25,534 nt of DNA from a virus. Below, in pieces: positions 1 through 14,616 of the stretch. Each line of letters opens with the position of its first letter. Position 1 is the stretch's first letter. The DNA is taken from positions 1 through 25,534 of IMG/VR virus record IMGVR_UViG_3300036768_000240. The stretch is one strand, 5' to 3'. Below the pieces are notes generated by a model that saw only the letters and a program-made list of their open reading frames with translations, ran no database searches and was not told the origin of the DNA. The position numbers and the translations under genes are program-made.

Positions 1-230
1 TCGGCATCGACCGAGTGGGTCGTCGTCTCGGTGGCCTTCAGGTCGGCATCGACCGAGTGGGTCTTCGTCCCGATGGCCTTCAGGTCGGCATCGACCGAGT
101 GGGTCGTCGTCTCGGTGGCCTTCAGATCGGCATCGACCGAGTGGGTCATCGTCCCGATGGCCTTCAGGTCGGCATCGACCGAGTGGGTCTTCGTCCCGAT
201 GGCCTTCAGGTCGGCATCGACCGAGTGGGT
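1..230 (-). repeat. 42-bp in-frame tandem repeat, 6 copies, running off the window
   Basis: The 20-nt core tcggcatcgaccgagtgggt begins at 1, 43, 85, 127, 169 and 211, an exact 42-bp period. On the minus strand each unit encodes THSVDADLKA followed by IGTK, IGTM or TETT. In transcription order the linkers are IGTK, IGTM, TETT, IGTK, TETT, so part of the array has an 84-bp higher-order period. Copies are nearly identical at DNA level, which suggests recent expansion or gene conversion. The array may be longer outside the window. There are no unique spacers, so it is not CRISPR. Confidence 0.97.
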
Positions 231-1319
231 TTTTGTTAGGGTGGCTGGTCCCGGCACCGCGTACTGGAGCATCAATGCGCTCCAGCGCGGGTTCGGGCTG
301 GCGTCGGAGGAGAACCCGACCCGACCCTTCACACCGTTCAAGTTCGTCTGCGTCCATCCGCCGGAGGGAGCCGTGATGATGGCGCTCTTGTAGTTGAGCG
401 CCGTGACGTTCATCCCTCCCGAGTAGATGTCGGTCAGGGTATTTCCGGCCGAGTCTACGATGCGGGTCGTGCCGTTGTTGGCCGAGGTGCTAGTAGAGAC
501 ATAGGCCAAGTACCCGTGGACGCCCCAGATGGTCGTCTCGGTCGTGTCCTCGAACTGCACCTCAGCGTAGTTGCCGGTGCCGTTCCCCGTCTGAGCGATG
601 TAGGTCGTGGTATCGGCAGGCCACTCGTCCACGTCTTCCCAGTAGACGTTCGAGGTCCCGGTCGAAGTTATGACCGAACCGGCGTTCGAGGTACCGTCAG
701 CGTTCGGAACAAGCGCGAGGACCTTGTGAGGGCCGATCGGGTAATCCGTCGAGGTATAGGAGAGGACGAAGTCGTCGTACCAGCAGGTCGCGGTGTGGCT
801 CAAGGAACTCGATCCGAACCGGAACGCGGTCATCGTGGTGGCGGTCTGACCGGACAAGCTCGAAGTGGTCTGGGTAACTCCATCGACCGACCACTCGATG
901 GTATAGGTCGTGGAGTTGGTCAGGATGCGGAAGTCCAGCTGGTGCCAGGCCCCGTCCACGATATTGGGGCCATCGACGATAGCTGTACCACCGAAAGCCG
1001 CCCGGATGAGGCCGGTGCTGGTCACCCAGAACTGGGGGTTGCTCGTCGGCCCTATACAGAGCATGATGACGCTGTTGACCGACGGGTTCGCTGTGAGCCG
1101 GATGTAGAGGCTGCCGACGAGGGCCTGCGAGCTGATGGTCTTTTGGATGTTGGTCGCCGTCACTCCGTCCTCGGCGACCTTGAGCGCAGCAGCGCCCGTA
1201 CGTTTGTTCACCGTGTCGATGGTGACGGCAGCAGCGTTCGAGACGTTGCCCCAGATACCGCCCCCGCTCGTGGAGAGTGTCTGATGCTCGAAGCCGTCGA
1301 TGGTGACAGGAGTGGGCAT
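1..1319 (-). CDS. Tail-fibre/lectin-like structural protein with 14-residue tandem repeats (partial, C-terminus beyond window)
   Basis: This frame is open from an ATG at 1319 to the window edge (439 codons, no stop). AGGAG lies 7-8 nt upstream of the ATG. Residues 1 to about 200 are Thr/Ser/Gly-rich and beta-strand-like, with YDDFVLSY near residue 180, which resembles LamG/concanavalin-A-like lectin domains of phage fibre and appendage proteins. A second beta-rich stretch follows, ending PNPRWSALMLQYAVPGP near residue 360. From residue 364 the protein enters repeats of THSVDADLKA plus four variable residues. I infer a virion surface protein that contacts the host; the lectin fold is suggested, not shown. 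The gene is GC-richer than the genes upstream. It follows the lysozyme gene, separated by a structured RNA. Several open plus-strand frames across it are by-products of the repeat and GC bias. Confidence 0.8.
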   Translation of the reverse strand, partial: MPTPVTIDGFEHQTLSTSGGGIWGNVSNAAAVTIDTVNKRTGAAALKVAEDGVTATNIQKTISSQALVGSLYIRLTANPSVNSVIMLCIGPTSNPQFWVTSTGLIRAAFGGTAIVDGPNIVDGAWHQLDFRILTNSTTYTIEWSVDGVTQTTSSLSGQTATTMTAFRFGSSSLSHTATCWYDDFVLSYTSTDYPIGPHKVLALVPNADGTSNAGSVITSTGTSNVYWEDVDEWPADTTTYIAQTGNGTGNYAEVQFEDTTETTIWGVHGYLAYVSTSTSANNGTTRIVDSAGNTLTDIYSGGMNVTALNYKSAIITAPSGGWTQTNLNGVKGRVGFSSDASPNPRWSALMLQYAVPGPATLTKTHSVDADLKAIGTKTHSVDADLKAIGTMTHSVDADLKATETTTHSVDADLKAIGTKTHSVDADLKATETTTHSVDA

Positions 1320-1344
1320 CTAGCCAATCACTCCTGATGTCTTA

Positions 1345-1415
1345 GTAGTCATAAGCATTGTATTGCCTCACTATGAGCCCATTGTATTGGGCTTTACCAT
1401 AGTGAGTATGACTAC
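1345..1415 (-). ncRNA. Structured RNA: predicted three-way junction with two identical AUACAA hexaloops
   Basis: The 71-nt minus-strand RNA between the lysozyme and tail-fibre genes has three nested perfect pairings. P1 is GUAGUCAUA (1415-1407) with UAUGACUAC (1353-1345). P2 is CUCACUAUG (1406-1398) with CAUAGUGAG (1375-1367), continued across a GUAA bulge by AGCCCA (1393-1388) with UGGGCU (1381-1376), closing loop AUACAA. The remaining 13 nt (1366-1354) form a mini-hairpin P3, GCA/UGC, with the same AUACAA loop. The ribosome site AGGAG (1335-1331) of the tail-fibre gene starts about 9 nt after P1. There is no U-tract, so it is not a simple terminator, and no T-loop, so it is not a tRNA. A 5' UTR regulator, processing site or small RNA are all possible. 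Confidence 0.6.
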
Positions 1416-1435
1416 GAGAGGATTAAGAATCTACT

Positions 1436-1921
1436 TCAAGCGCACGACCATGGCTCCCATCCACCGTTGTGAGCCATCCTGATTGCGATGATGACGTTCG
1501 CCCTGGTAAGATAGGCGGCTCCTGGGTATATAGTGGCATCGCGGTTGATCCTTTCCCACTGCTGATCAGTGAACCACCGCTTCTTCAGGAAAGAATGAAC
1601 CCTATCACGCCAGTAGTTATCTTTATGCTGGAAAACACCGAGGTTATCCCCGCCTTTGGCCCACGGCCAGAAGCCTGACTCGCATTCAGCCACATCGAGC
1701 GCCTTCGAGGCGCCTCCTGGCACCGACCAGCGATCAGTCACGCACCGGATGAGCGCTTTCACCCGCCTTGCGACCTCATCGTGACCCATGCGTGGCTTCA
1801 CATCGTAGAAGTCGCTTGAGCAGACACCGTAACCAGAGGCATGCGCCTCAGTGAAATTGCCATCAGATATGACAATATTGAATGATACAAAAAGAGCCAG
1901 CAAAATCCGGAAGAACAACAA
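1436..1921 (-). CDS. Secreted lysozyme / lytic-transglycosylase-like protein
   Basis: About 161 residues. The N-terminus is a hydrophobic signal peptide or anchor (LFFRILLALFVSFNIVIS) ending near AHASG. The core contains ALDVAECESGFWPWAKGG followed by DNLGVFQHKDNYW, the E-S-G-F...G-x-F-Q pattern of the SLT/lysozyme-like fold; the Glu of CESGF is the predicted catalytic acid. The C-terminus (AYLTRANVIIAIRMAHNGGWEPWSCA) also fits that fold. A GTG at 1930 abuts the ribosome site GGAGG too closely, so I prefer the TTG at 1921, 8 nt downstream of it. Likely role: peptidoglycan cleavage at lysis or entry. It sits just upstream of the tail-fibre gene, so a virion-associated hydrolase is possible. 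No holin was recognised next to it. Confidence 0.75.
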   Translation of the reverse strand: MLFFRILLALFVSFNIVISDGNFTEAHASGYGVCSSDFYDVKPRMGHDEVARRVKALIRCVTDRWSVPGGASKALDVAECESGFWPWAKGGDNLGVFQHKDNYWRDRVHSFLKKRWFTDQQWERINRDATIYPGAAYLTRANVIIAIRMAHNGGWEPWSCA

Positions 1922-2005
1922 TAATCCCACCTCCGTAAGGTCTTCAGTGGCTGGCCTTCACGGCAAGGTCGTTACTTTCTATCACCCCCTTTATCGTATC
2001 CACCA

Positions 2006-2278
2006 CTAGATGGTCACCAAGTTGTAGTGCCAGGTTATCACCTGGTAGTCGAATATGACATCTTCTTCTTTAAGTCGATCCCTGTATCGCCTCAGTGCGT
2101 CTTGGATTACCTTGACGCATCTGAACCTTAGGTTCTCATGGTCTTCCGGGCTATCACCATAGATGCCCACCACGTACCTGATGTCTTTAGGTGTATCCCA
2201 ACTAAAGGAGATTGACTTCACACCAGGGATTCTGCCGAGCGTAGTGGTAATCTCCTCAACCATGTCGTAAACATTCAC
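2006..2278 (-). CDS. Hypothetical protein (90 aa)
   Basis: This 90-residue acidic/basic mixed protein has no recognised family. It has an N-terminal amphipathic helix (VYDMVEEITTTLGRIPGV), a strand (KSISFSW), a charged helix (CVKVIQDALRRYRDRLKEED) and a C-terminal strand (VIFDYQVITWHYNLVTI), a small alpha/beta layout. It starts at GTG 2278, overlapping the glycosyltransferase stop by 4 nt (GTGA), so translation is probably coupled. No signal peptide or membrane segment is seen. Confidence 0.7.
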   Translation of the reverse strand: MNVYDMVEEITTTLGRIPGVKSISFSWDTPKDIRYVVGIYGDSPEDHENLRFRCVKVIQDALRRYRDRLKEEDVIFDYQVITWHYNLVTI

Positions 2279-3036
2279 CGCTCCATCATCCCTCGCACAT
2301 AATCTGGACTAAGATATTCGGCTGTCCTCACGTAATACCCACCCTCGATACGACCGGCTCTAGCGGACAGGGTATCAGGATGTTCCCTCCGGTACATGGC
2401 CGGGACAGGAATCTTCACATACCCGGCATGATACCTCAAGATGTCGGTGATATACCCTGCATCCCAGGAATGCGGGTGGCCTTTGTAGCCCTTCCTCCAT
2501 TTCACGTCACATTTCCTGAAACACTCAGATCTGTGCGCGAAGGCACCGAGGTTCCACCATGTCGTCGAAGCGATATCCTCTTCCTTTAACTCTATCAGGA
2601 ATCCCAATCTCCCATCCTCGAACGGGTCTTCACCGTCATAGAAGTAGTACATATCGCCCACTACGACATGTAGGTTGGGGTTCTTCATCAACATGTCATC
2701 GACATAAACAAGCCAGTCTGGGTGAAGGATATCATCATCACATAGGTACGTGATGGTCTGCCCGTCAGGTATCTTCGAGAGGAGCCAGTTCATGTTGGTA
2801 GACCATCTGGTGCTTCCAGGGCGTACCCGTTCTTCCGGAGTGACTTTATCAGCAACGGCAAGTACTACTCTATTGTCTCCGATATCCTCTATGACTGACC
2901 GTATGTCGAAGTCGCTCCCATCATCGTAGACCCAACACACTACCTCGGCCTTTGAAGCGAGAACACTCCTTATAGCCTCCCGCACCATACGAGGACGATT
3001 ATACGACATCACGATGACGTTGTTAATCATAGTCAT
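2275..3036 (-). CDS. Glycosyltransferase family 2 (paralogue A)
   Basis: 253 residues. NNVIVMSYNRPRMVREAIRS at the N-terminus is the nucleotide-binding first strand and helix of GT-A enzymes. DDGSDFD (residues 38-44) is the GT2 signature, and LCDDDILHPDWL (DDD at 100-102) is the metal/nucleotide-sugar-binding DXD-type motif. The C-terminus holds YRREHPDTLSARAGR. It is clearly paralogous to the gene at 4199-5047, sharing YNRP, DDGSDFD, EERV, LCDDDI, YRREHP..LSA and the GMME tail. It presumably transfers a sugar from a nucleotide donor; the acceptor (virion protein, modified DNA base or host glycan) cannot be told. Start is ATG 3036, or ATG 3030, which would give an 8-nt overlap with the upstream stop. 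Confidence 0.9.
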   Translation of the reverse strand: MTMINNVIVMSYNRPRMVREAIRSVLASKAEVVCWVYDDGSDFDIRSVIEDIGDNRVVLAVADKVTPEERVRPGSTRWSTNMNWLLSKIPDGQTITYLCDDDILHPDWLVYVDDMLMKNPNLHVVVGDMYYFYDGEDPFEDGRLGFLIELKEEDIASTTWWNLGAFAHRSECFRKCDVKWRKGYKGHPHSWDAGYITDILRYHAGYVKIPVPAMYRREHPDTLSARAGRIEGGYYVRTAEYLSPDYVRGMMER

Positions 3037-3283
3037 AATACTTATGTACTACATAATCGACATCTAACTTGTCAGCAATATAACCGACAACATCGTTAAG
3101 ATATTCAACTGTTTCGACCATCTTCTTGAAAGTATCATTGATGGCGTCTTTTTTCTGCTCAAGCTCTTCTAGTTTTTTTATCCTCCTTTCGAGACGACCA
3201 ACTTCTTTCTTGAGTTCTTTAATCTGATCTCCAGCTATCTGCTCTATCATAGATTCCGGCACATCGACCCTAAGCTTAGCCAT
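3023..3283 (-). CDS. Small coiled-coil protein
   Basis: 86 residues from the ATG at 3283 (MAKLRVDVPE), which overlaps the upstream ligase stop by 8 nt (ATGGCTAA) and has AAGGG about 8 nt upstream; an in-frame extension to 3310 lacks such support. Residues 18-50 are a heptad-rich charged helix (IKELKKEVGRLERRIKKLEE), almost certainly a coiled coil. The C-terminus (NDVVGYIADKLDVDYVVHKY) is a second amphipathic segment. The function is unknown. It lies between an RNA ligase and a glycosyltransferase in a coupled operon, so it may be an oligomerising partner of one of them, but that is only positional inference. Confidence 0.75.
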   Translation of the reverse strand: MAKLRVDVPESMIEQIAGDQIKELKKEVGRLERRIKKLEELEQKKDAINDTFKKMVETVEYLNDVVGYIADKLDVDYVVHKYYDYD

Positions 3284-4202
3284 CTTCATCACCCTTGAAC
3301 TGTAAATCAAGGAGTTTCTGTTTGTACCACTCTGGCAAACCCCTGGTGGATTTCCGTTGGATCTCTGGCAGAATGAACTTCATGAACCTGCCTGCTATGT
3401 ATTCATACTCCTCTTCTGCGATGTCTTCCCATACCTCTTTGAGGATCTTCCCGATGTCACGAGGTGACCACTCTAGTTCTCCGCGCTCATCGAGATGCAT
3501 AACCGCTTTCTGCCACCTGGCAGGCGAACGCAACTCATCCACCAGATGATCGAGAACATCGCCTATGGTCGGATTACCCTTGCGCCACTCCTTCCTGTGA
3601 ACCTCCTTGAAAGATTCAGCCACGTGTTTGCCCATAAGAACCTTCCCGGTCCTCTCGTCGAACATGTCGTAGTTCTTTATGACGACACCCTCGACCTTAG
3701 ACTTGCCGAGCATGCTCTCCCTCTCCAAGAAGGAATCCAGGAAATCTTTAGTTACTTCCTCTCCTGGCATGGTGATGGCATCGACCATCTCCAGTCCGAG
3801 CCTTTCACACTCTGACTTAACTTCATCTGGGCGCAAGAAGTCATTCGGGGCCCGCTCGATGTCGAACACCACGAGGTTACCGACTGGCACCCTACCGTAT
3901 TCGATGGTGTTGTGCCGTTCACGGAAGATTGCCTCGCATCGGTAGATGTAACCAGGAGTAAGTAGCCCCTTCTTGTTGAGTTTCCGCATGGTTGCGATGG
4001 AACGAATGAATAGCTGATTGGTTTCCGTTTCGTATAGGGTTGTCCCCTTGGACCGCATGTAGAGATTGCCCTCTTCATCGACCACAGCAGAGAATTGACT
4101 ACCGTCAATCTTCTCACTCACATGGACGACCCCATCGAGGAGGTTCTTCAGTACCGGATGGCCGAGGTTGTGGACCTTTGGATAAGAGTGTATCTCCATC
4201 AT
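3276..4202 (-). CDS. RNA ligase, Rnl2-like nucleotidyltransferase
   Basis: 308 residues. SEKIDGSQF holds motif I (K-x-D-G, nucleophile Lys31), which would be adenylated by ATP. RSKG near residue 51 fits motif Ia, YRCEAIF and VVFDIE fit the region of motifs III/IIIa, VEGVVIKNYD is motif IV, and GKHVAESFKEVHRKEW near residue 198 fits motif V. A helical C-terminal domain of about 100 residues follows. The layout matches T4 Rnl2-type RNA ligases, which seal nicked RNA, for example in tRNA repair after host anticodon cleavage. A DNA ligase is less likely because no OB or BRCT domain is apparent. It starts at ATG 4202, a 4-nt ATGA overlap with the upstream glycosyltransferase. No polynucleotide kinase is seen nearby. 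Confidence 0.85.
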   Translation of the reverse strand: MMEIHSYPKVHNLGHPVLKNLLDGVVHVSEKIDGSQFSAVVDEEGNLYMRSKGTTLYETETNQLFIRSIATMRKLNKKGLLTPGYIYRCEAIFRERHNTIEYGRVPVGNLVVFDIERAPNDFLRPDEVKSECERLGLEMVDAITMPGEEVTKDFLDSFLERESMLGKSKVEGVVIKNYDMFDERTGKVLMGKHVAESFKEVHRKEWRKGNPTIGDVLDHLVDELRSPARWQKAVMHLDERGELEWSPRDIGKILKEVWEDIAEEEYEYIAGRFMKFILPEIQRKSTRGLPEWYKQKLLDLQFKGDEDG

Positions 4203-5047
4203 TCCATCATCCCTTCGATGTGCTCTCGTTTCGCTGGTGGGGGGATATAGCCTGGCTTATATCTTCCCTCTTCATCTTTCCTGCCCAGCTTAGCAGAAAG
4301 GGCCTTCGGATGTTCCCTCCTGTAAACGGATGGGCTCGGGATATAGAGGTAGTCTGAATGTAGATTCCAGAGATCTAGGATGAAATTAGCATCTTGCGAG
4401 TGGAGATGGTAGTTGTCCTTCCACCATACCCCTTCTTCCTTGCAACACTTCACCCTATGACCGAAACTCCCGGTGGACCAATACGCGATCGGGATGCCTG
4501 ACGCCTCATAGGTAGATAGCCCGTACCTCGCCTCGGCTCTCCAATCCTGGCCATCATCGAAATACCAAGACTCTCCAGCCACGACATGGATAGCCGGATA
4601 GTTTATGAACCCAATCATGGCCCGCAATATCCAGTTCGGAGCCATGATATCGTCATCACAGAGGTAGAAAACTACATCATCGTTATCGAGTGTCTCGATG
4701 ACTGAATTCAGGTTCCTCCCGAGCCGGCTCACCTTTACCCTTTCCTCGACCGGGATTTTCGGAGCCTGAGCGAGCAGCAATCTGGGATTTTCGAACTCTT
4801 TTATAATCCCCCAAACGTCGAAGTCACTTCCGTCATCTACGATGTAGATGTCGAGGTCACCATATTGCTGTTCCAGGACAGACTCGATAGCCTGCCGGAG
4901 CATCTTTGGGCGATTGTACGAAAGGATAAGTACGTTCGCTTTAAACGAAGGCGTGACGGGTTCTTCTTTGAACTGCCGCTCATCCTTGGTCATCATTATA
5001 ATGTCTTTCTGCATGTCGAACTTAGGTTCTTCTATAATCCTTTTCAT
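4199..5047 (-). CDS. Glycosyltransferase family 2 (paralogue B)
   Basis: 282 residues. A charged N-terminal extension of about 35 residues precedes NVLILSYNRPKMLRQAIESV. DDGSDFD lies at 71-77 and LCDDDIMAPNWI carries the DDD motif at 131-133. The C-terminal half (SQDANFILDLW, YRREHPKALSAKLGR, EGMME) aligns by eye with paralogue A at 2275-3036, so the pair arose by duplication. The extension distinguishes the two and may change partner or substrate. ATG 5047 follows GGCGGAG closely; a later start at residue 12, 18 or 19 is possible. The stop overlaps the RNA ligase start (ATGA). Predicted soluble: no signal peptide or membrane helix is seen. Confidence 0.9.
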   Translation of the reverse strand: MKRIIEEPKFDMQKDIIMMTKDERQFKEEPVTPSFKANVLILSYNRPKMLRQAIESVLEQQYGDLDIYIVDDGSDFDVWGIIKEFENPRLLLAQAPKIPVEERVKVSRLGRNLNSVIETLDNDDVVFYLCDDDIMAPNWILRAMIGFINYPAIHVVAGESWYFDDGQDWRAEARYGLSTYEASGIPIAYWSTGSFGHRVKCCKEEGVWWKDNYHLHSQDANFILDLWNLHSDYLYIPSPSVYRREHPKALSAKLGRKDEEGRYKPGYIPPPAKREHIEGMME

Positions 5048-5059
5048 ATCTCCGCCTAT

Positions 5060-5149
5060 CTATTTTTTCAGCATTCCCAGCGACCTTAGGACTACGAACG
5101 CCAAGATAACCACCACGCCAATCGATAGTAAGATTGCGTAATCAGTCAC
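5060..5149 (-). CDS. 29-residue single-pass membrane peptide
   Basis: A GTG at 5149 opens a 29-codon frame: a polar start (MTDYA), one hydrophobic helix (ILLSIGVVVILAFVVL) and a basic tail (RSLGMLKK), ending TAG at 5060-5062. GAGG lies 9 nt upstream, and the start overlaps the previous stop by 8 nt (GTGACTGA), the same overlap style as several neighbours. The positive-inside rule suggests N-out/C-in. It fills what would otherwise be a 94-nt gap. It could be a holin-like or other membrane-modulating peptide; the size alone does not decide. Confidence 0.6.
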   Translation of the reverse strand: MTDYAILLSIGVVVILAFVVLRSLGMLKK

Positions 5150-5399
5150 TACCGAATTCCTCGATTATCCATGAAACTGTCAGTGTCCTTATCTTTCCAT
5201 TATTGTCTAGTGTACCAGAAACACACACATTATCTGGGTTCAGGTGGATATGTTCAGGGCTATCACTGCGATCGAAATTCATACGGACGTAGCGCTTCCT
5301 TACGCCGTTATCTGAAACCGTGTCGAACTCATCTATAACTACTTCCATTATACGTCTGCCGTCTGGCGTTTTATCTATTTCCTTCTTCTTTCGGAACAT
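5142..5399 (-). CDS. Hypothetical protein (85 aa)
   Basis: 85 residues with a basic start (MFRKKKEIDK) followed by mostly beta-strand-like sequence (RIMEVVIDEFDTV, KRYVRMNFD, VCVSGTLDN, IRTLTVSWIIEEF). No family is recognised. ATG 5399 lies inside the end of the upstream gene (29-nt overlap). Its own stop overlaps the start of the 29-residue membrane peptide by 8 nt. It belongs to a run of three small unknown soluble proteins between the SPFH and glycosyltransferase genes. Confidence 0.65.
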   Translation of the reverse strand: MFRKKKEIDKTPDGRRIMEVVIDEFDTVSDNGVRKRYVRMNFDRSDSPEHIHLNPDNVCVSGTLDNNGKIRTLTVSWIIEEFGSD

Positions 5400-5619
5400 A
5401 CCTCGCCTTATCGCCTTTCCATTTCACAGTTCCTAGGAAGTACAGATTGCCACCAACGAATCCTTTGTAGACGTACACCTCATCACCGTTTCCCACTTGC
5501 TCGACGAAAGAGGAGGCATCATCAATCGCATTCTGAAGGGTCGCATACCCTTCGGTCGCTTCTCCTCCATGCAAAACGTTGTTGTCGTCTATGTAGTAAC
5601 CGGTGATTATGGTGTACAT
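5371..5619 (-). CDS. Hypothetical protein (82 aa)
   Basis: 82 residues, start ATG 5619 two nt after the upstream stop. The sequence alternates strands and one helix (YTIITGYYIDDNNVLHGGEA, TLQNAIDDASSFVEQV, EVYVYKGF, LYFLGTVKWKG). No Cys, signal peptide or membrane segment is present, and I do not recognise a family. Coupled spacing places it in the same operon as its neighbours. Confidence 0.65.
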   Translation of the reverse strand: MYTIITGYYIDDNNVLHGGEATEGYATLQNAIDDASSFVEQVGNGDEVYVYKGFVGGNLYFLGTVKWKGDKARYVPKEEGNR

Positions 5620-5621
5620 AC

Positions 5622-5945
5622 TTACTTGCGCAAACCATTCATGATGCGCTCTGCCAAGAACCTCTCCCCATCGATATCAATCCACTCCACTTCTTTCTTG
5701 TCTTGGTTGTAGTCGAGGTATTGTATCTTGACCGATGTGTCGAAGAAGTTCTTCACATTCACGAGCGCAGCCCGCTGCTTCTCCTTGGTCTCATAAATCC
5801 TCAGACAGAACGGGTTATCGTTATAGGTTCGCTCGCTTGGGATTATCCTTGAATACGTGACCTTCCAATCGCTTGGAATTTCGACCTTTATAACATCGTG
5901 ATCGAGCTGGATGATGTAGGTTCTCGTTTCTTCCTTGTCAGCCAT
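5622..5945 (-). CDS. Hypothetical protein (107 aa)
   Basis: 107 residues. The ATG at 5945 (MADKEETRTY) is preceded 7 nt upstream by AAAGGAG; the GTG codon just before it is less likely. Predicted alternating strands (TYIIQLDHDVIKVEIP, CLRIYETKEK, SVKIQYLDYN) and a C-terminal helix (GERFLAERIMNGLRK). No family is recognised. It is the first gene after the SPFH gene, with its own strong ribosome site. Confidence 0.7.
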   Translation of the reverse strand: MADKEETRTYIIQLDHDVIKVEIPSDWKVTYSRIIPSERTYNDNPFCLRIYETKEKQRAALVNVKNFFDTSVKIQYLDYNQDKKEVEWIDIDGERFLAERIMNGLRK

Positions 5946-5981
5946 CACTTTTCTCCTTTCATCATATTGCGTCCTAGACGG

Positions 5982-6911
5982 TTACCTCGGCCCACCGGGC
6001 AGGGTGAGTGAAAGATCTTTGTCGCTAGGTATAACCCAGAACGTAATCTTACCGGACTTGATTGCCTCGTAGAGGACACACGTTTGACCGCACTCCGTGA
6101 GGGCCTTCTGGCGCTCACGGATGGCCTCGGCCTCGAGCTTGGCCTGCTCGACCTCGTTCAGCTTCGTCTGCACCGCAATCTGCGAGGTCCGGTTGGCCTC
6201 GAACGCCTCCTTCACGGAAGCCGGGATTGAGATATGTTTGATGACGAACGTGAAGTCGGGGCACTCATCCGGACGAGCGATGTTGTACTCAACCCCGCAG
6301 AAGTAGTCATCTCCTAGGACATCGTTGATGTTCTCCTTAAGAGAGATGCCGACTTCGTGCTGGATTTCTGTCAAGGTCTGGCTGTCTGCGTAGATGTCGG
6401 CGACATCGTATTTGCGGGCCTCGCGCTGGAGCGCGAACTCGATCTGCTGCCGGAAGGACTCGGACAGCATGCGCTCCCACCCGCCATCCGTCCAAGCCTG
6501 GTACTTGAGCCCGATGGTCTCGTGGAACTGCCGGATGAGCGAAAGGTTCAGCTTGAAGTAGGTTGCGACCTCGAAGTCAACCTGGATTCGATCACGAGAC
6601 GGAGCAGAGATTGCCCCCTTTATGTCACCCTCATCAGAGCGACTTATGATGTATGAACGTTGAGTAACTGGGTAAAGGTAAATCTTATCCCCCCAACCGT
6701 TGAAGAAGATTGACGAACCTGGCTGCACTACTCCCTGGAAATGTGCTCCCTCAAAGAAACCGCCTCCGTAAGAGAGCCCAATCTTATCCCGAGGAGTTTT
6801 CTTGAAGGGCCATAAAACAGCACCGATTATTGCCGCGATTACCAGCAAGAATATCAAAATCCCCACCAAAGTTTGCACTAAGAGTTCACGAGCACGAGCA
6901 TCAGGGTCCAT
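5982..6911 (-). CDS. SPFH/Band 7 (prohibitin-like) membrane protein
   Basis: 309 residues from ATG 6911, with AAAGGAG 7 nt upstream. After a short acidic N-terminus, one membrane helix runs about residues 11-34 ([20 protein letters not shown]). It is followed by an SPFH-type domain: [48 protein letters not shown], then a helical [23 protein letters not shown] Glu/Ala/Lys-rich coiled helix ([20 protein letters not shown]) fits the C-terminal oligomerisation segment of flotillin/stomatin relatives. Such proteins assemble membrane microdomains or cages around proteases and channels; proteins described this way are also annotated in actinophages. Its start is coupled (TGATG) to a remnant gene fragment downstream of the phosphoesterase. 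Confidence 0.85.
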
Positions 6912-7003
6912 CAATTATCTCCTTTCTCGCTAACTTTCCTGGCGACCCAGTCATCTAACAGATTAACTGGGATTACCGTGCGGCGAATCGGGTCAGCCAT
7001 CAT
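6911..7003 (-). pseudogene. 3' remnant of a duplicate of the 13767-14189 gene
   Basis: A 30-codon frame directly after the phosphoesterase gene reads MMADP...[18 protein letters not shown]. It matches the C-terminal part of the intact 140-residue protein at 13767-14189 (AMMLADP and VNLLDSWVARKVREK). At DNA level 40 of 45 bases agree between 6923-6967 and 13860-13904. Its TGA overlaps the SPFH start as TGATG, so before interruption it was the last part of a gene coupled to SPFH. It is probably a leftover, though still translatable. Confidence 0.75.
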
Positions 7004-7896
7004 AGCGGAATCGGCGTGGCCGACGCCGCGTCACCGAGTCGCGGCAGACCGTAGGCGTCCTCGATTGCGGCGAGGATCGAGTAGTGCGTATACGGTGTCG
7101 CGTCGGTCGAACCGGCCGGAACGTTGGGCCCTACCTCGACCGCGTACAGCGTCCCCGACTCGTCATAGGTCACGATTACCTCGGCGCCAGCGGAGAGCAA
7201 GGGCGGCAGGTTGGCCGCGAGCCAGTCATCACCGCGCTTGTACAGCTCTGGGGTCTTCGGGTAGCAGTTCGCGAACTTCGGCGTGCCATCGGGCCATACC
7301 GCCTTTGTGCCGTGCTGGTCGTTGCAGATACCAGGGGCGATGAATGACACGGCAGGCAGGTTGGCGGGATCGATGCTCGAAAACGGCAGGACGTGCGCCC
7401 GGCACAGAGTCTGGTCGCCGAAGATGCTCGGGAAGGGAGTGGCCGGGTTGTGCTTCAAGGCGTACGGCGTGTCCAACGCGAAGTTTTGATAGTTGGCCTT
7501 CGCGTAACACGGCTGGGGCATCGCATCCTCGTAGACGGCCCAGCTGATGCCCGCGTCCTGGAGCTGGTTCCATAGCGTCGTCGGACAGGCGGCGCCGATG
7601 TCGGCCTCACCGGCTGAGACCTTATCGCTATCTTTGCCGCACCGCGAGCCCGCTGCAATCTCCAGGTAGTCGGGGAGCGATGGGCCGGTGGGGTCACCCT
7701 CCTTGTAGTTGGTGAAGTACCGGCCCTGAGAGACGAGGCTGTTCAGATAGGGCGTGTACGGATTGCCGAGGATCATGGAGGCATGCTTGTTCTCCATGAA
7801 CACAATCACGATCGGAGCGATGCTCGACAACACCGGCGGAGGAGGGGACGCAATCGCGAGTGGGATGAGAGACAGGACCAAGAGCAGTTTCCGCAT
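7000..7896 (-). CDS. Secreted phosphoesterase (AcpA/phospholipase-C-like, alkaline-phosphatase superfamily)
   Basis: 298 residues from ATG 7896, with GGAGG 6 nt upstream. The signal peptide is MRKLLLVLSLIPLAIASP. Phosphoesterase-family marks: IVIVFMENKHASMILGN (conserved M-E-N-K, metal/nucleophile region), TPYLNSLVSQGRYFTNY, LPDYLEIAAGS, EVIVTYDESG (metal-binding DE) and PYTHYSILAAIEDAYGLPRLG, the typical family end. Six or more Cys suggest extracytoplasmic disulfides. It should hydrolyse phosphate esters outside the cell. GC content is visibly above the flanking phage genes. An in-frame extension to 7920 (MSVYRRPA) derives from the interrupted recipient gene, and the TGA stop lies in recipient sequence. 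I read it as a transferred cargo (moron) gene. Confidence 0.88.
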   Translation of the reverse strand: MRKLLLVLSLIPLAIASPPPPVLSSIAPIVIVFMENKHASMILGNPYTPYLNSLVSQGRYFTNYKEGDPTGPSLPDYLEIAAGSRCGKDSDKVSAGEADIGAACPTTLWNQLQDAGISWAVYEDAMPQPCYAKANYQNFALDTPYALKHNPATPFPSIFGDQTLCRAHVLPFSSIDPANLPAVSFIAPGICNDQHGTKAVWPDGTPKFANCYPKTPELYKRGDDWLAANLPPLLSAGAEVIVTYDESGTLYAVEVGPNVPAGSTDATPYTHYSILAAIEDAYGLPRLGDAASATPIPL

Positions 7897-7932
7897 GGCT
7901 GGCCTCCTATATACCGACATCGATTAACCTCT
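7897..7932 (-). pseudogene. 5' remnant of the same interrupted duplicate gene (start region)
   Basis: Minus-strand sequence here gives a ribosome site (AGAGG), ATG at 7920 and codons for MSVYRRPA. It agrees at 29 of 36 positions with 14166-14201, the start of the intact gene (MSVYRGPA). Similarity stops at the ATG of the phosphoesterase. With the 6911-7003 fragment it brackets the inserted gene. Confidence 0.7.
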
Positions 7933-7939
7933 TAAAGAT

Positions 7940-8488
7940 TCACTCGACCTCGAACCTAGCCGAGTCAACCAACCTTGCAAGGACATGGGAGATGTCCCAA
8001 TTCACTCCTTGAGCGAAGATGTTGCGCTGCTCACGAGGAGGAGAGATGGGTACTTCGCCCTTCTTCCGCCACACATCGATAATCCTCACCCCCCTTCTGG
8101 CCGGAGGCACCGAAACCTTCACGAAATACGTATAACCATCATATTCACTAGCGAAGACGAGACGATAAGGAGAGATAGGGTTAGAAATACCCTCATTGGA
8201 GAACTCGTAAGGAATCCCCTCGGAAACCGTGTTGACGACGTGCCGATATTCCGGCACATCGTTCAGTCTTCCGATATTCTCCTTAACAAACTCCATCTCC
8301 TCATCTATGACATCGAGGTCATTCGGCAAGATGCCTCGTTCGATCATCTTCTTGATGACGAACGGCGGAATGAATACATAGCACTTGGCCATGTAATCCT
8401 GCAACTCATCGAGCATGTCGATTTCACGCTCGGTGAAATCCCGATAGAACTTCTTCTTGATGATGTGATGCTGCTTAACCATCACCAT
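7940..8488 (-). CDS. Hypothetical protein (182 aa)
   Basis: 182 residues from ATG 8488, with GAGAGGAG 7-8 nt upstream and a 14-nt overlap with the previous stop. The N-terminal half is helical and charged (YRDFTEREIDMLDELQDYMA, PPFVIKKMIERGILPNDLDV). The C-terminal half is strand-rich (YRLVFASEYDGYTYFVKVSV, RRGVRIIDVWRK). No catalytic motif, Cys cluster or membrane segment is seen, and the family is not recognised. It lies between another unknown and the inserted phosphoesterase. Confidence 0.7.
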   Translation of the reverse strand: MVMVKQHHIIKKKFYRDFTEREIDMLDELQDYMAKCYVFIPPFVIKKMIERGILPNDLDVIDEEMEFVKENIGRLNDVPEYRHVVNTVSEGIPYEFSNEGISNPISPYRLVFASEYDGYTYFVKVSVPPARRGVRIIDVWRKKGEVPISPPREQRNIFAQGVNWDISHVLARLVDSARFEVE

Positions 8489-8864
8489 TTAGCCACTCCT
8501 CTCCGAAAACTGCTGCCGATGCAATCCTAACTGCGTCGAACTTATCGACGAACATCGGCCTAAGGATTACAAGGTTGTAGTATTTCACCACGGGGATCTT
8601 CTCGATGACCGCCTCTTCCGGTTCGAAACCGAACCAGACCCCACCTTCTGCCCCCATCCAATCATACCGAACTTGTGGAAGTTCGGCTATGATTGCCTTA
8701 TCGAGACGACTTATCGGTGTCCATCGATCAGCCCTATATATGGACACCTCCAACCCGCCGGTCGGAGCCTCCCACAGGGCGAACGTGCCCATATGTTTGA
8801 CACCTATAGGGCCAAACTTCGTCCTTTCGGGTCCGCTTATGCCGAAGAAATCTGTTTTGCGCAC
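8475..8864 (-). CDS. Hypothetical protein (129 aa)
   Basis: 129 residues from GTG 8864, starting 3 nt after the Ku stop with GAGG about 9 nt upstream, so it is probably co-translated with Ku. It is rich in aromatic and strand-like segments (MGTFALWEAPTGGLEVSIY, GVWFGFEPEEAVIEKIPVV, YYNLVILRPMFVDKFDAVRI). No family is recognised. Its position straight after Ku makes a DNA-end function conceivable, but nothing in the sequence shows this. Confidence 0.7.
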   Translation of the reverse strand: MRKTDFFGISGPERTKFGPIGVKHMGTFALWEAPTGGLEVSIYRADRWTPISRLDKAIIAELPQVRYDWMGAEGGVWFGFEPEEAVIEKIPVVKYYNLVILRPMFVDKFDAVRIASAAVFGEEWLNGDG

Positions 8865-8867
8865 TTA

Positions 8868-9776
8868 TCACTTCCTCTTCTTAGAGCCGACCGTCTTGGG
8901 CTTGACCTTGGTGGCCGACACCTTCTTGGTCTTCGGAGTAAGCGAGTCAAGGAACCCCCTGATGTCAACGAGCGGGGCAGGCAATCCCTCTGCGGGGGCC
9001 TCGATGGGCCTCGCGGTGATGACCTTCTCCTTGGTGTCGAGCAACGCTGCCACCTTCTCGTACTGTTCCTGACCAGACGGAGCCTCCATGATGGGACGCT
9101 CCTTCGCCTTGAAGAACTTCGAGATTGCGGCAAACTCCCGCTTGTCGTATCCCTCGCCGGGGCCATACATAAGGGGGATGGGCTCCCTGATTTCCTCCTG
9201 ATAACGGATGGTGATGAGGTTTCCAGTTGGGAACAAGATCCCCATCCTGATGCCGCCCGAAACTGGCACGGAAACGTAGAGTCCCTGGTTGTTCTTGTCG
9301 AGCGCGTCGAATAGCAGCCGAAGCTGTCGTTCGACGGAGGGCAATGCCTCGCGCTTCTTGCTCCCGGTCTTGAAGCCCCTCACGAGGTAGTGGTCAACCG
9401 GCGAGATAACCCCTGAGTCGATTAGCCTCGGGATATCGTCGAGAGGGATGGGGTGGATGATCTCGATAGCGGCACTATCTCCGCCGAGAGCCTCCTTGAC
9501 CTCCTCCCGAGAAACGAGCACGAAAGCATCACCGTATTCCGCCATCTTCGTAACTTCTGTCTTCGGAACGGTGATATCGCAAACAGGGCAATAGTAGTTG
9601 TACCTTACCCTGGTTGAACAGTCGGTGTGGTAAAGATGGAACTCTACACCGCCAGCTCGGATGTCGGAAGACATCTTGTAGAGAAAGACGGGGATCGAGA
9701 TGTGACCGTCTTCAGCGTCGTAGTTCAACGTGCCCTTGAATAGGGCAGACCTGGGCTGAGCCCGCATCGCACACAT
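8868..9776 (-). CDS. ku: Ku-family DNA end-binding protein
   Basis: 302 residues from ATG 9776, with AAAGGAGG 5-7 nt upstream. The N-terminus follows bacterial Ku: SALFKGTLNYDAEDGHISIP then VFLYKMSSD, VEFHLYHTDCSTRVRYNYYC and PVCDITVPKTEV, then an acidic block with YGDAFVLVSREEVKEAL, IEIIHPIPLDDIP and YLVRGFKTGSKK. GGIRMGILFPTGNLITIRY and EEIREP correspond to the later core that forms the DNA-encircling ring. The C-terminal tail is Lys-rich (TKKVSATKVKPKTVGSKKRK), as in mycobacterial Ku. Bacterial Ku dimers bind double-strand ends and recruit LigD. Phage Ku proteins are known from mycobacteriophages Omega and Corndog. No LigD is visible here, so a host ligase would be required. Confidence 0.88.
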   Translation of the reverse strand: MCAMRAQPRSALFKGTLNYDAEDGHISIPVFLYKMSSDIRAGGVEFHLYHTDCSTRVRYNYYCPVCDITVPKTEVTKMAEYGDAFVLVSREEVKEALGGDSAAIEIIHPIPLDDIPRLIDSGVISPVDHYLVRGFKTGSKKREALPSVERQLRLLFDALDKNNQGLYVSVPVSGGIRMGILFPTGNLITIRYQEEIREPIPLMYGPGEGYDKREFAAISKFFKAKERPIMEAPSGQEQYEKVAALLDTKEKVITARPIEAPAEGLPAPLVDIRGFLDSLTPKTKKVSATKVKPKTVGSKKRK

Positions 9777-9820
9777 CGTTTCCTCCTTTCCCACGCGAAT
9801 CGCTTTACGGCATCACCATC

Positions 9821-9849
9821 ATGATAGACAAGGCGCAAATGTATGTCAT
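9821..9849 (-). promoter_or_regulatory. Candidate sigma70-type promoter for the Ku gene
   Basis: On the minus strand ATGACA (9849-9844) and TATCAT (9826-9821) are separated by 17 nt and match the consensus hexamers at 10 of 12 positions. They lie in the 76-nt gap between the zinc mini-protein stop and the Ku start. A start near 9814 would give a leader of about 38 nt carrying AAAGGAGG. Confidence 0.4.
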
Positions 9850-9852
9850 ATC

Positions 9853-10020
9853 TTATTTAGAGGACTTATCGATTCCACCAATGTCGTCATGAATGCACAG
9901 CTGACAAATCCCCGCATAAACGTAATTCGGCCCCCACGGTGCCGGACCGAACTTCCTGAAACAGGTGCCACAGATAAGACATTCAGTTATATGTTCAGTC
10001 CACTGAACAGCTTTGTTCAT
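9853..10020 (-). CDS. Zinc-knuckle mini-protein (55 aa)
   Basis: A 55-codon frame from ATG 10020, overlapping the methyltransferase stop by 4 nt (ATGA), to TAA at 9853-9855. Cys at residues 14, 17, 20, 39 and 42 (CLICGTC ... CQLC) suggest a treble-clef or zinc-ribbon site; His10 and His44 may add ligands. It is coupled to the methyltransferase and followed by Ku. A nucleic-acid-binding accessory role is likely but not shown. It fills the apparent gap between 10017 and Ku. Confidence 0.7.
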   Translation of the reverse strand: MNKAVQWTEHITECLICGTCFRKFGPAPWGPNYVYAGICQLCIHDDIGGIDKSSK

Positions 10021-10952
10021 TGCCCATTACCCCGTCCTCTGGTCTTACTGTACCGAGTGGCCGCCGACTTCCTGCGGGTGCCGAGTCGCTCTGCATCGAT
10101 AGCAATCTTGTCGAAACTCGCGACCAACTGCTGATGTCGTACCGCGAGAGACGCTTGGATGCGATCCCTCGCGTAGCAGACGTACTTTTCCACGATGTCG
10201 TAACCGACGTAATGCCGACCGAGATTCCGCGCTACCTTGAGCGTCTGTCCAGACCCGCAGAACGGGTCCAGGACTAAATCTCCTGGGTATGAATAGAGCT
10301 GGATCAGCCGCCAGGGGATTTCCTCAGGGAAGGGGCATGGGTGATCCAGATGACCAGGTGGCACGGGCGCTATGTGCCACACGTTGTGCGCGACTTCGTT
10401 CGTGAAAAGTCGTCCTGTTGGGACTACTGCTTCTTCCTTATCTATGCTAGTTCGCATCTCATATATCTGAGGTCCTGGCTTTCGGAAAACCAAGATGTAC
10501 TCGGTCATGATATTGGGGTAGAAGTACCCGGGATATGGTTTCTGGAGGAAGACGCCGGCGCGCTTAACGCCTCCAGTCACTTTATGCCAGATTATGTCTT
10601 GACGAAACTCCCAGCCCTTACGCCAAAGTATGGATGTGATATCGAAAGGAGCCGGGTAGTGCGTTCCCTCCAAGAGGACGGTTCCGACCACGACCGCATA
10701 GAAGCCACCTGGTTTTGTGACCCGAAGCACTTCATCAGAGATGCACGAGAACCACTCGAGATATTCTTCATATCGTTTGAAACCAGCGGAGTAACTACGC
10801 GTCCTGTAGTTGAGAGTCGGATCTGACGCATGTACGTCGTAATCGATCGCGTTCCAGTAGGGCGGAGAGGTGACCGTAAGGGCGACTACGCCGTCCGGGA
10901 TCTCCGCCATAGACTCGCTGGACTTACAGAATACATTGTCGATATAGAGCAC
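10017..10952 (-). CDS. DNA methyltransferase, N4-cytosine type (beta class)
   Basis: 311 residues from GTG 10952 (GGGAGG about 10 nt upstream, overlapping the previous gene by 29 nt). Motif IV comes first, TSPPYW at 28-33, typical of m4C and some m6A enzymes. DPFCGSG at 229-235 is the AdoMet-binding motif I and is followed by HYVGYDIVEKY. The IV-before-I order defines the beta class. Between them, EYLEWFSCISDEVLRVTKPG and DIIWHK are conserved in this fold. The tail after residue 280 is basic. No restriction partner is adjacent, so a solitary phage methyltransferase that masks host restriction sites is the simplest reading. Confidence 0.92.
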   Translation of the reverse strand: MLYIDNVFCKSSESMAEIPDGVVALTVTSPPYWNAIDYDVHASDPTLNYRTRSYSAGFKRYEEYLEWFSCISDEVLRVTKPGGFYAVVVGTVLLEGTHYPAPFDITSILWRKGWEFRQDIIWHKVTGGVKRAGVFLQKPYPGYFYPNIMTEYILVFRKPGPQIYEMRTSIDKEEAVVPTGRLFTNEVAHNVWHIAPVPPGHLDHPCPFPEEIPWRLIQLYSYPGDLVLDPFCGSGQTLKVARNLGRHYVGYDIVEKYVCYARDRIQASLAVRHQQLVASFDKIAIDAERLGTRRKSAATRYSKTRGRGNGQ

Positions 10953-11328
10953 CCGTTGATTGCCTCCCTAGTTGTTTGTAAATCTTTGCGATCATCGCTT
11001 CCCAAATCCGATGCAAAGAGAACCTTGCGTATCGCTTAACGCCAATCTTAGGGTTGACTGAGTAAAACGCATCATCCTTAAGATGGCGGAGCAGCCAAGC
11101 GAAATCCTCAAGACTCATCGTGACGAGCCAGCGTCCATGATCGGGCCGAGTCGCCAAGATGAACATCCACTTATCACCACTCTCGTCGCGGTCTGGATAC
11201 CTGTTCCGTTCTACATCCCATGGAACCCCTGTGGAGGTCCGCCTAAACGTTATGTCCGAGCCCTCCAGGCCCTCGATCACTTCATTCTCGGCCTCGGCTT
11301 CCGTATGCTTCTTGCCAAGATTACCCAT
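10924..11328 (-). CDS. Hypothetical protein (134 aa)
   Basis: 134 residues if started at ATG 11328, which overlaps the upstream stop (TGATG) with AGGA 8 nt upstream; a longer frame to 11397 would run through the neighbouring gene. The N-terminus is acidic (KKHTEAEAENEVIEGLEG). The middle has GDKWMFILATRPDHGRWLVT and SLEDFAWLLRHLKD, followed by a basic helical end (RIWEAMIAKIYKQLGRQ). No family is recognised. The stop lies 29 nt inside the methyltransferase gene. Confidence 0.6.
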   Translation of the reverse strand: MGNLGKKHTEAEAENEVIEGLEGSDITFRRTSTGVPWDVERNRYPDRDESGDKWMFILATRPDHGRWLVTMSLEDFAWLLRHLKDDAFYSVNPKIGVKRYARFSLHRIWEAMIAKIYKQLGRQSTGALYRQCIL

Positions 11329-13306: not shown

Positions 13307-13834
13307 TCATCCTCTAACCTTCATCCTATAGTACCCATGCATGCGTAGAGCACGAACTACCGTCTGGTAAGACACACCGAACTTCTGTGCGATTTTATGG
13401 AGCGGCTCATTCGGGTTCTGCTTGGCATAAAGGTACATCTCCTCGTACCGCTTCCTAGTCTTCTCTTTCCTCCCCGCCCATCCAGGAGCGAAGATGCCGT
13501 TCTCATGAAGGATCTTGATGACGAAGCTTGTCGTCGCTCCTGTATCTTTGGCAATCTTCCTTATCGAAGCGCCCTGCTTGCCCATCTCGATGATCTTATC
13601 CTTATATGGCAGCTGCTTCCGATAAGACTTAGACGGGATATACCTCTTTCCTGTATATCCGTACTTACTGATGATCTGCTGGATACGCTGACGACTAACG
13701 CCATATTTCTTTGCTATATCGCCCATCGATGCGTACGCATCAGAGAAGTACTCATCGATGATGGCCTTATGTAGCTCGGGAATCCCCCTTGGAGGATTCT
13801 TGACGATCAGGTTGCTGAACTTCTTCTCGGTCAT
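13307..13834 (-). CDS. Triple helix-turn-helix DNA-binding protein
   Basis: 175 residues from ATG 13834 (AGGAG 6 nt upstream); the frame is open to 13882 but without a ribosome site. Three HTH units are visible: MGDIAKKYGVSRQRIQQIIS (about 38-60), IRKIAKDTGATTSFVIKILH (about 89-113) and LHKIAQKFGVSYQTVVRALR (about 143-168). They are separated by basic linkers (RYIPSKSYRKQ, GRKEKTRKRYEE). Each ends in a Gly-aromatic or Gly-Ile turn, as in sigma-4/resolvase-type HTHs. No catalytic domain follows, so it is probably a regulator that reads an extended or repeated DNA site. The start overlaps the upstream gene by 68 nt. Confidence 0.75.
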   Translation of the reverse strand: MTEKKFSNLIVKNPPRGIPELHKAIIDEYFSDAYASMGDIAKKYGVSRQRIQQIISKYGYTGKRYIPSKSYRKQLPYKDKIIEMGKQGASIRKIAKDTGATTSFVIKILHENGIFAPGWAGRKEKTRKRYEEMYLYAKQNPNEPLHKIAQKFGVSYQTVVRALRMHGYYRMKVRG

Positions 13835-14189
13835 GATAACTCCTATCAATCTCTGAAAACTTCTCTCTAACTTTCCTGGCAACCCAGCTATCTAACAGAT
13901 TAACAACCCTTTCTGTACGGAGGTTAGGTTTACCGCTCTCCTCTGCGTCTAGTGAATAGTCGTCAGGATCAGCCAGCATCATCGCAATCTCGCCGACCCA
14001 ATCCCCTGTGTTCGCTATCGTGAACGGTTCAACACCGGCTTTCCCATACCCGAGTAGGTTCAGGAGCCAAAGGAGGTTATCGCGCTCGTACCTATTCAAT
14101 ACGAGCACCCACCGCATCCCTTCATGTGCCCTAGAAGGGGGGAGCCCTTGACCTTCGTAGATGACTGCTGGTCCTCTATATACAGACAT
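13767..14189 (-). CDS. Hypothetical protein, intact copy of a duplicated gene (140 aa)
   Basis: 140 residues from ATG 14189, with AGAGG 7-8 nt upstream. Order: MSVYRGPAVIYEGQGLPP; a helical WVLVLNRYERDNLLWLLNLL (about 27-46); EPFTIANTGDWVGEIAMMLA; then VVNLLDSWVARKVREKF near 95-111 and a charged tail. No family is recognised. The same start and end sequences flank the phosphoesterase at 7000-7896, so a second copy once lay there. The tail beyond residue 111 overlaps the downstream HTH start by 68 nt and is absent from the other copy, suggesting that the frame was extended here. Confidence 0.7.
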   Translation of the reverse strand: MSVYRGPAVIYEGQGLPPSRAHEGMRWVLVLNRYERDNLLWLLNLLGYGKAGVEPFTIANTGDWVGEIAMMLADPDDYSLDAEESGKPNLRTERVVNLLDSWVARKVREKFSEIDRSYHDREEVQQPDRQESSKGDSRAT

Positions 14190-14192
14190 AGA

Positions 14193-14543
14193 TCAACCTC
14201 TGAAAAATTCGAACTCTGAAACCTTCTTGCGGCGACCACGCGGAGGAGCATCCCCCACATGATGCCCCCTGAAGTACAGACCAGGGGTATATTTGCCAGC
14301 GTTGTCTGGATGTACGTAGAACGATTCAACCTCTCTACCGGCAATCTTCGCTGCGTAGCCAATCTTACCCATCCAGGCAGATTTCTTCTCGGGTGCAACT
14401 TCTGGCACGCAATACCATGACCCACTATCGGCAGAATCGACGAGGATCTTCACTAGCCGCTCCACCTGAGCTGACCTACGCCGCCTGGTCTTCCGGTCCG
14501 GTAGATGCTCCGGATCGATAGGGATGATATCTTGCTCTGGCAC
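14193..14543 (-). CDS. Hypothetical protein (116 aa)
   Basis: About 116 residues. I prefer GTG 14543, 4 nt after AAAGGAGG; frames to ATG 14558 or TTG 14591 are alternatives. Basic N-terminal region (LPDRKTRRRRSAQVERLVK), then strands (GSWYCVPEVAPEKKSAWMG) and ESFYVHPDN...TPGLYFRG, and a basic C-terminus (PPRGRRKKVSEFEFFRG). No family is recognised. The last codons resemble the stretch in front of the interrupted copy at 7932. A terminator-like hairpin and a candidate extended -10 element lie upstream. Confidence 0.65.
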   Translation of the reverse strand: MPEQDIIPIDPEHLPDRKTRRRRSAQVERLVKILVDSADSGSWYCVPEVAPEKKSAWMGKIGYAAKIAGREVESFYVHPDNAGKYTPGLYFRGHHVGDAPPRGRRKKVSEFEFFRG

Positions 14544-14577
14544 CCTTCCTCCTTTCATGGCATCCAACACACCACCC

Positions 14578-14586
14578 ATCATAGCA
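14578..14586 (-). promoter_or_regulatory. Candidate extended -10 promoter (TGCTATGAT)
   Basis: Minus-strand TGC followed directly by TATGAT is an extended -10 element; no good -35 is seen. It lies after the 14633-14670 hairpin and about 28 nt before the AAAGGAGG/GTG start at 14543. The order hairpin, -10, ribosome site, start suggests a transcription-unit boundary. The evidence is short and could be chance. Confidence 0.25.
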
Positions 14587-14616
14587 AGCAATCAAGACCA
14601 TTTGGCGAACTTAATC

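What the first reader, a model, noticed from the sequence alone, without database searches (positions are those of the whole stretch)
6911..7932. Secreted phosphoesterase gene inserted into a duplicated phage gene, with both junctions readable
The phosphoesterase is bracketed by the start and end of a second copy of the gene at 13767-14189. The left flank (7897-7932) agrees with 14166-14201 at 29 of 36 bases and encodes MSVYRRPA versus MSVYRGPA. The right flank (6923-6967) agrees with 13860-13904 at 40 of 45 and encodes VNLLDDWVARKVSEK versus VNLLDSWVARKVREK. Similarity ends at the phosphoesterase ATG on one side. On the other, the insert's TGA stop falls within the recipient's own ATGATG (Met-Met codons 70-71 of the intact copy). 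The insert is GC-richer, carries a signal peptide, and uses an AGGAGG that lies in recipient sequence. It looks like cargo that replaced codons 9-69 of a phage gene and borrowed its translation signals at both ends.
Basis: seen in the sequence. Interest (0 to 1): 0.85.

Follow-up and report, generated by a model that had tools for sequence, protein, structure and literature searches.

The report
Phage gene replaced by secreted phosphatase
In a bacterial virus known only from metagenomes, a small viral gene now sits in a new place and its old slot is occupied by a probable secreted phosphatase gene that keeps the old gene's first and last codons; a sister virus still shows the original arrangement, so the exchange can be read almost base by base.

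Summary
A sister phage contig (IMGVR_UViG_3300010938_000067, 91-95% identical) carries an intact gene X, the homologue of window 13767-14189, exactly where the window has the phosphoesterase. It lacks X at 13861-14205; a third contig is also empty there. So in the window's lineage X was inserted into the last codons of gene Y, about 6.9 kb away, and a PF04185 phosphatase gene took X's old slot. The cargo kept X's leader, its first 8 codons (with AGGAGG) and its last 15 or so codons, which carry the ribosome-binding site of the next gene, SPFH. Both flanks of the phosphatase are colinear with the sister phage, so an assembly chimera is unlikely, but no reads were available. All seven residues essential in mycobacterial SapM appear present. 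The gene is GC-rich and no close relative was found (best local matches up to 41%). Two corrections: the lost stretch of X runs from codon 9 to about 95, not 69, and the claim that the stop lies in X's own ATGATG is only weakly supported (p 0.005-0.014). This is a clean example of known phage mosaicism, not a new kind of system.

The parts
7000..7896 (-). Phosphoesterase (PE), 298 aa, PF04185, probable secreted phosphatase (an in-frame start at 7920 would add MSVYRRPA)
   Evidence: Pfam E=2.1e-16; fold matches to phospholipases C and the alkaline-phosphatase superfamily; E35, N36, S73, H149, H195, D245, E246 invariant in the 13-sequence alignment
7897..7941 (-). Retained 5' end of gene X at its old site: leader from GAAT plus codons 1-8 (MSVYRRPA), containing AGGAGG
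   Evidence: 35/43 to the window copy, 38/43 to the sister phage, 0 of 1000 shuffles reach the score
6911..6967 (-). Retained 3' end of gene X ([18 protein letters not shown]) with the AAAGGAGAT ribosome-binding site of SPFH
   Evidence: 40/44 to 13861-13904; colinear with the sister phage
6968..7010 (-). Junction stretch of uncertain origin, including the ATGATG overlap of the PE stop with a 30-codon mini-ORF (6911-7003)
   Evidence: similarity to X p = 0.005-0.014 only
5982..6911 (-). SPFH/Band 7 protein gene downstream
   Evidence: Pfam PF01145 E=2.4e-12
7940..8488 (-). Conserved upstream phage gene, 96% identical in the sister phage
13767..14189 (-). Gene X at its new site; homology to sister X covers 13861-14205, and the C-terminus beyond residue 110 is read-through into local sequence
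   Evidence: 92.5% over 345 bp to the sister X; dN 0.030, dS 0.235 over 110 codons
14193..14591 (-). Gene Y, whose last codons were split by the X copy (ends SEFEFFRG* instead of SEFE[WL]KKFSEI*)
13846..13862 (-). Displaced Y tail (KFSEI), now read at the end of the X ORF

Best explanation
Step 1 (shown by comparison): in the lineage of the window and of the 84.7-kb contig, a 345-bp copy of gene X, from a few bases before its start to codon 110, was inserted into the last codons of gene Y, about 6.9 kb from its old site. Step 2 (shown by comparison; its order after step 1 is inferred): at the old site the interior of X was replaced by a GC-rich, probably horizontally acquired gene for a PF04185 phosphatase. 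The cargo can be read from its own ATG with an AGGAGG that lies in X codons 5-6. The retained 3' end of X keeps the ribosome-binding site and stop/start overlap of SPFH, so the operon stays translatable on both sides. Mechanism (inferred): illegitimate recombination at short matches (GAAT and GAGAA at the X copy). Function (inferred from family and catalytic residues): the phosphatase is active and exported during infection, and releases phosphate from phosphomonoesters or alters envelope phosphates.
For: The sister contig has X at the PE site and none at site 1. A third contig also lacks X at site 1 and keeps Y's tail ELKKFSEI, which polarises the insertion. The 84.7-kb contig, 99.99% identical, contains the left X junction and 35 bases past the right one. 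Both PE flanks are colinear with the sister. PE is a GC outlier. PF04185 is absent from the three relatives' contigs. X shows purifying selection (dN/dS about 0.13), and its conserved core is what PE displaced. Catalytic residues are complete against SapM mutagenesis (PMC6635428).
Against: No reads or second contig span the PE junctions; the 84.7-kb contig stops before them. The site patterns do not date the copy cleanly: the left flank favours old site with sister (5 sites against 2 and 3), the right flank favours the two window copies (5 against 2 and 2). No close donor was found. Secretion and activity are predictions.
Confidence: 0.62

Rival explanations
1. Same end state, other order or source: PE replaced X first, or the X now at 13767-14189 came from another phage of the group by inter-phage recombination rather than by copying within the genome.
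For: Site patterns are mixed, and window-to-sister divergence of X (7.5%) is close to the genome background, so X at site 1 need not be a recent intragenomic copy.
Against: Right-flank patterns favour common descent of the two window copies (5 sites against 2 and 2); losing X before regaining it would need X to be dispensable, while X shows purifying selection.
Confidence: 0.28
2. Assembly chimera: PE belongs to another organism and was joined into the phage contig.
For: GC jump; no second contig carries the junctions.
Against: It needs two separate false joins, both inside remnants of the same gene, with the phage colinear on either side, a start codon 6 nt behind AGGAGG, and the SPFH signal intact. 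The new site of X is supported separately by the 84.7-kb contig.
Confidence: 0.07
3. Reverse polarity: PE was ancestral at this site and the sister phage's X replaced it.
For: Only one relative covers the PE site.
Against: Remnants of both X ends flank PE, while the sister has no PE remnant; PE is compositionally foreign and absent from relatives.
Confidence: 0.03

Closest known systems
Gene substitution and insertion between mycobacteriophages Brujita and Island3 (PMC3029335, section 13)
   Same: Nearly identical phages differ by gene replacement with boundaries near start and stop codons, ascribed to illegitimate exchange; Island3 gene 68 shares its C-terminal 18 codons with the preceding gene 67.
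   Different: Here the replaced gene leaves both ends behind and survives elsewhere in the genome, and the cargo is a recognisable enzyme with a signal-peptide-like N-terminus.
Phage morons and auxiliary metabolic genes, e.g. phosphorus-acquisition genes of soil phages (PMC10987575)
   Same: Extra host-type phosphatase gene in a phage, absent from close relatives.
   Different: That study lists phoD, ugpQ and others, and its main text does not contain the word phosphoesterase. This cargo appears to borrow translation signals of the gene it replaced.
SapM-type PF04185 phosphatases (PMC6635428)
   Same: Seven essential residues (SapM E59, N60, S95, H160, H204, D238, E239) correspond to PE E35, N36, S73, H149, H195, D245, E246.
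   Different: The correspondence was made by motif and spacing, SapM itself was not aligned here; PE has a long insertion between H195 and D245 and is phage-borne.

Membership tests
PF04185 phosphoesterase family | Sequence match above the curated cut-off | tested here: met
   60.5 bits against cut-off 23
PF04185 phosphoesterase family | Metal-binding and nucleophile residues (E-N, S, H, H, D-E) | tested here: met
   all invariant in alignment A5; roles taken from SapM mutagenesis
PF04185 phosphoesterase family | Alkaline-phosphatase-superfamily fold | tested here: met
   model pLDDT 77, pTM 0.80; best PDB match 8k3g, E=4.5e-9, though TM-score only 0.57
PF04185 phosphoesterase family | Phosphatase activity | not testable with these tools
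   needs expression and assay
Secreted protein (Sec signal peptide) | Charged n-region, hydrophobic core, small residues at the cleavage site | tested here: inconclusive
   seen by eye in MRKLLLVLSLIPLAIA/S; no predictor was run
Phage moron / cargo gene | Present in one genome and absent from an otherwise colinear relative | tested here: met
Phage moron / cargo gene | Own promoter and terminator | not tested
   no promoter or terminator scan was run; retained X signals suggest expression from the operon
Auxiliary metabolic gene for phosphorus acquisition | Raises phosphate supply of the infected host | not testable with these tools
   host unknown

The most novel reading that the evidence does not exclude
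The phage's own Ku homologue (8868-9794, about 1 kb from the cargo) captured foreign DNA by end joining, so that the short-match junctions and the filler-like sequence at 6968-7010 are traces of phage-encoded non-homologous end joining acting as a way to acquire genes.
Probability: 0.07. Interest if true: 0.7.

Novelty: new member of a known kind. Interest (0 to 1): 0.42.

Why it matters
Phage mosaicism is usually inferred from joins whose prior state is lost. Here close relatives preserve the prior state of both loci, so the way function was kept can be read: X survives elsewhere, and translation signals are preserved on both sides of the cargo. It suggests how a compact operon can accept a foreign, probably secreted enzyme without losing an apparently constrained gene.

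Tried and rejected
No phosphoesterase hit with the window protein in viral contigs or phage records. An alignment query found 12 viral contigs at 24-32% identity, none within the relatives found for this phage. Donor search: plasmids up to 31%, genome contigs 28-30%, 98 of 400 genomes of one phylum and 23 of 148 of another with local identities up to 41%: no close donor. The 5-sequence alignment was too diverse for a genome scan. X in two large-phage contigs (L004, L005) lies among ORFs that did not look like the window's neighbours, so it cannot polarise the locus. Fold of X: pLDDT 47.7, uninformative. A codon-weight test did not separate PE from phage genes (0.094 against -0.061 to 0.13); only GC and GC3 did. 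DNA ligase PF01068 was absent from the held records, which does not help the end-joining reading. No PDB chain matched meaningfully by sequence.

Full report
What is there. Gene order (all on the - strand) around the finding is: gene 7940-8488, phosphoesterase (PE), SPFH 5982-6911. The finding's two flanks are real: 40/44 on the right and 35/43 on the left, with 0 of 1000 dinucleotide shuffles reaching either score. The window is a 25.5-kb virus record.

The empty site. A viral contig in the public collection, IMGVR_UViG_3300010938_000067 (44 kb; G002; loci L003, L007, L008), has the 7940-8488 gene (96%), then an intact 113-residue gene X (homologue of 13767-14189), then SPFH (97%). The window is colinear with it at 91-95% on both sides of PE: 49-6961 and 7898-11071. 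PE thus occupies X's slot, with its neighbours in place.

The other site. In the same contig X is absent at window 13861-14205; gene Y (14193-14591) runs directly into the HTH gene. A third contig, IMGVR_UViG_3300043543_000382 (G005), is empty there as well. In both, Y ends SEFE[W/L]KKFSEI*. In the window Y ends SEFEFFRG*, and the codons KFSEI now follow X. X was therefore inserted into Y's last codons. The 84.7-kb contig IMGVR_UViG_3300035183_000841 (G001), 99.99% identical over 11,709 bases, has the same X insertion, with 35 bases beyond its right border before the contig ends. The X copy begins near GAAT and ends near GAGAA, short matches shared with Y. An alternative reading is a near-perfect 15-bp repeat, TTTTCAGAG[G/A]TTGAT, on both sides of the copy (seen in the sequence); these two readings were not separated.

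Which order. Copy first and replacement second is the simplest, since X stays constrained (dN 0.030, dS 0.235) and its core is conserved in large phages. But the three-way site patterns on the short remnants conflict, so X may also have come from another phage of the group. Leaving the order open, I would put the end state (X displaced, PE in X's old slot) at about 0.9.

Junction detail. On the 5' side phage sequence continues up to the PE ATG, and AGGAGG in X codons 5-6 sits 6 nt before it. On the 3' side certain X sequence begins at codon 96 (6967). The 43 bases before it, including ATGATG, resemble X codons 69-75 only weakly (p 0.014 and 0.005). Most inspected PE relatives run a few residues past the point where PE ends, which fits a truncated 3' end with a stop supplied at the junction but does not prove it. 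The mini-ORF 6911-7003 overlaps the PE stop and ends on the SPFH ATG, so coupled translation is plausible (inferred).

What PE is. PF04185 (60.5 bits); model pLDDT 77, pTM 0.80; best solved match a non-specific phospholipase C, 8k3g (E 4.5e-9, TM 0.57); best viral match a Hyperionvirus phosphoesterase (TM 0.67). E35, N36, S73, H149, H195, D245 and E246 are invariant in the 13-sequence alignment and correspond by motif and spacing to the residues whose mutation abolishes activity of SapM (PMC6635428). GC3 is 0.813 against 0.48-0.74 for 16 other genes. The family is common in bacteria, but no near relative was found, so the donor is unknown.

Novelty. Replacement of genes near their boundaries between close phages is known (Brujita/Island3, PMC3029335), and phage-borne phosphorus genes are known (PMC10987575). 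This case adds a displaced and preserved recipient gene, two retained ends, and a readable prior state at both loci.

Noticed in passing
window 17497-17937: A 441-bp in-frame stretch in the terminase gene, with a weak intein N-terminal match, is missing from relative G005: probably a mini-intein with an empty site in a close relative.
   Followed up: partly
window 1-230: 42-bp tandem repeat, about five copies, at the contig end; sister contig G002 also ends in this array, so both assemblies probably broke there.
   Followed up: partly
window 8868-9794: Ku homologue (PF02735) in the phage; no DNA ligase PF01068 in the 84.7-kb, 44-kb or 19.5-kb relatives.
   Followed up: partly
window 2275-3036 and 4199-5047: Two family-2 glycosyltransferase genes that share sequence (family D6): another probable paralogue pair in this phage.
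   Followed up: no
window 11072-11300: 229 bases absent from sister contig G002 inside an uncharacterised ORF.
   Followed up: no
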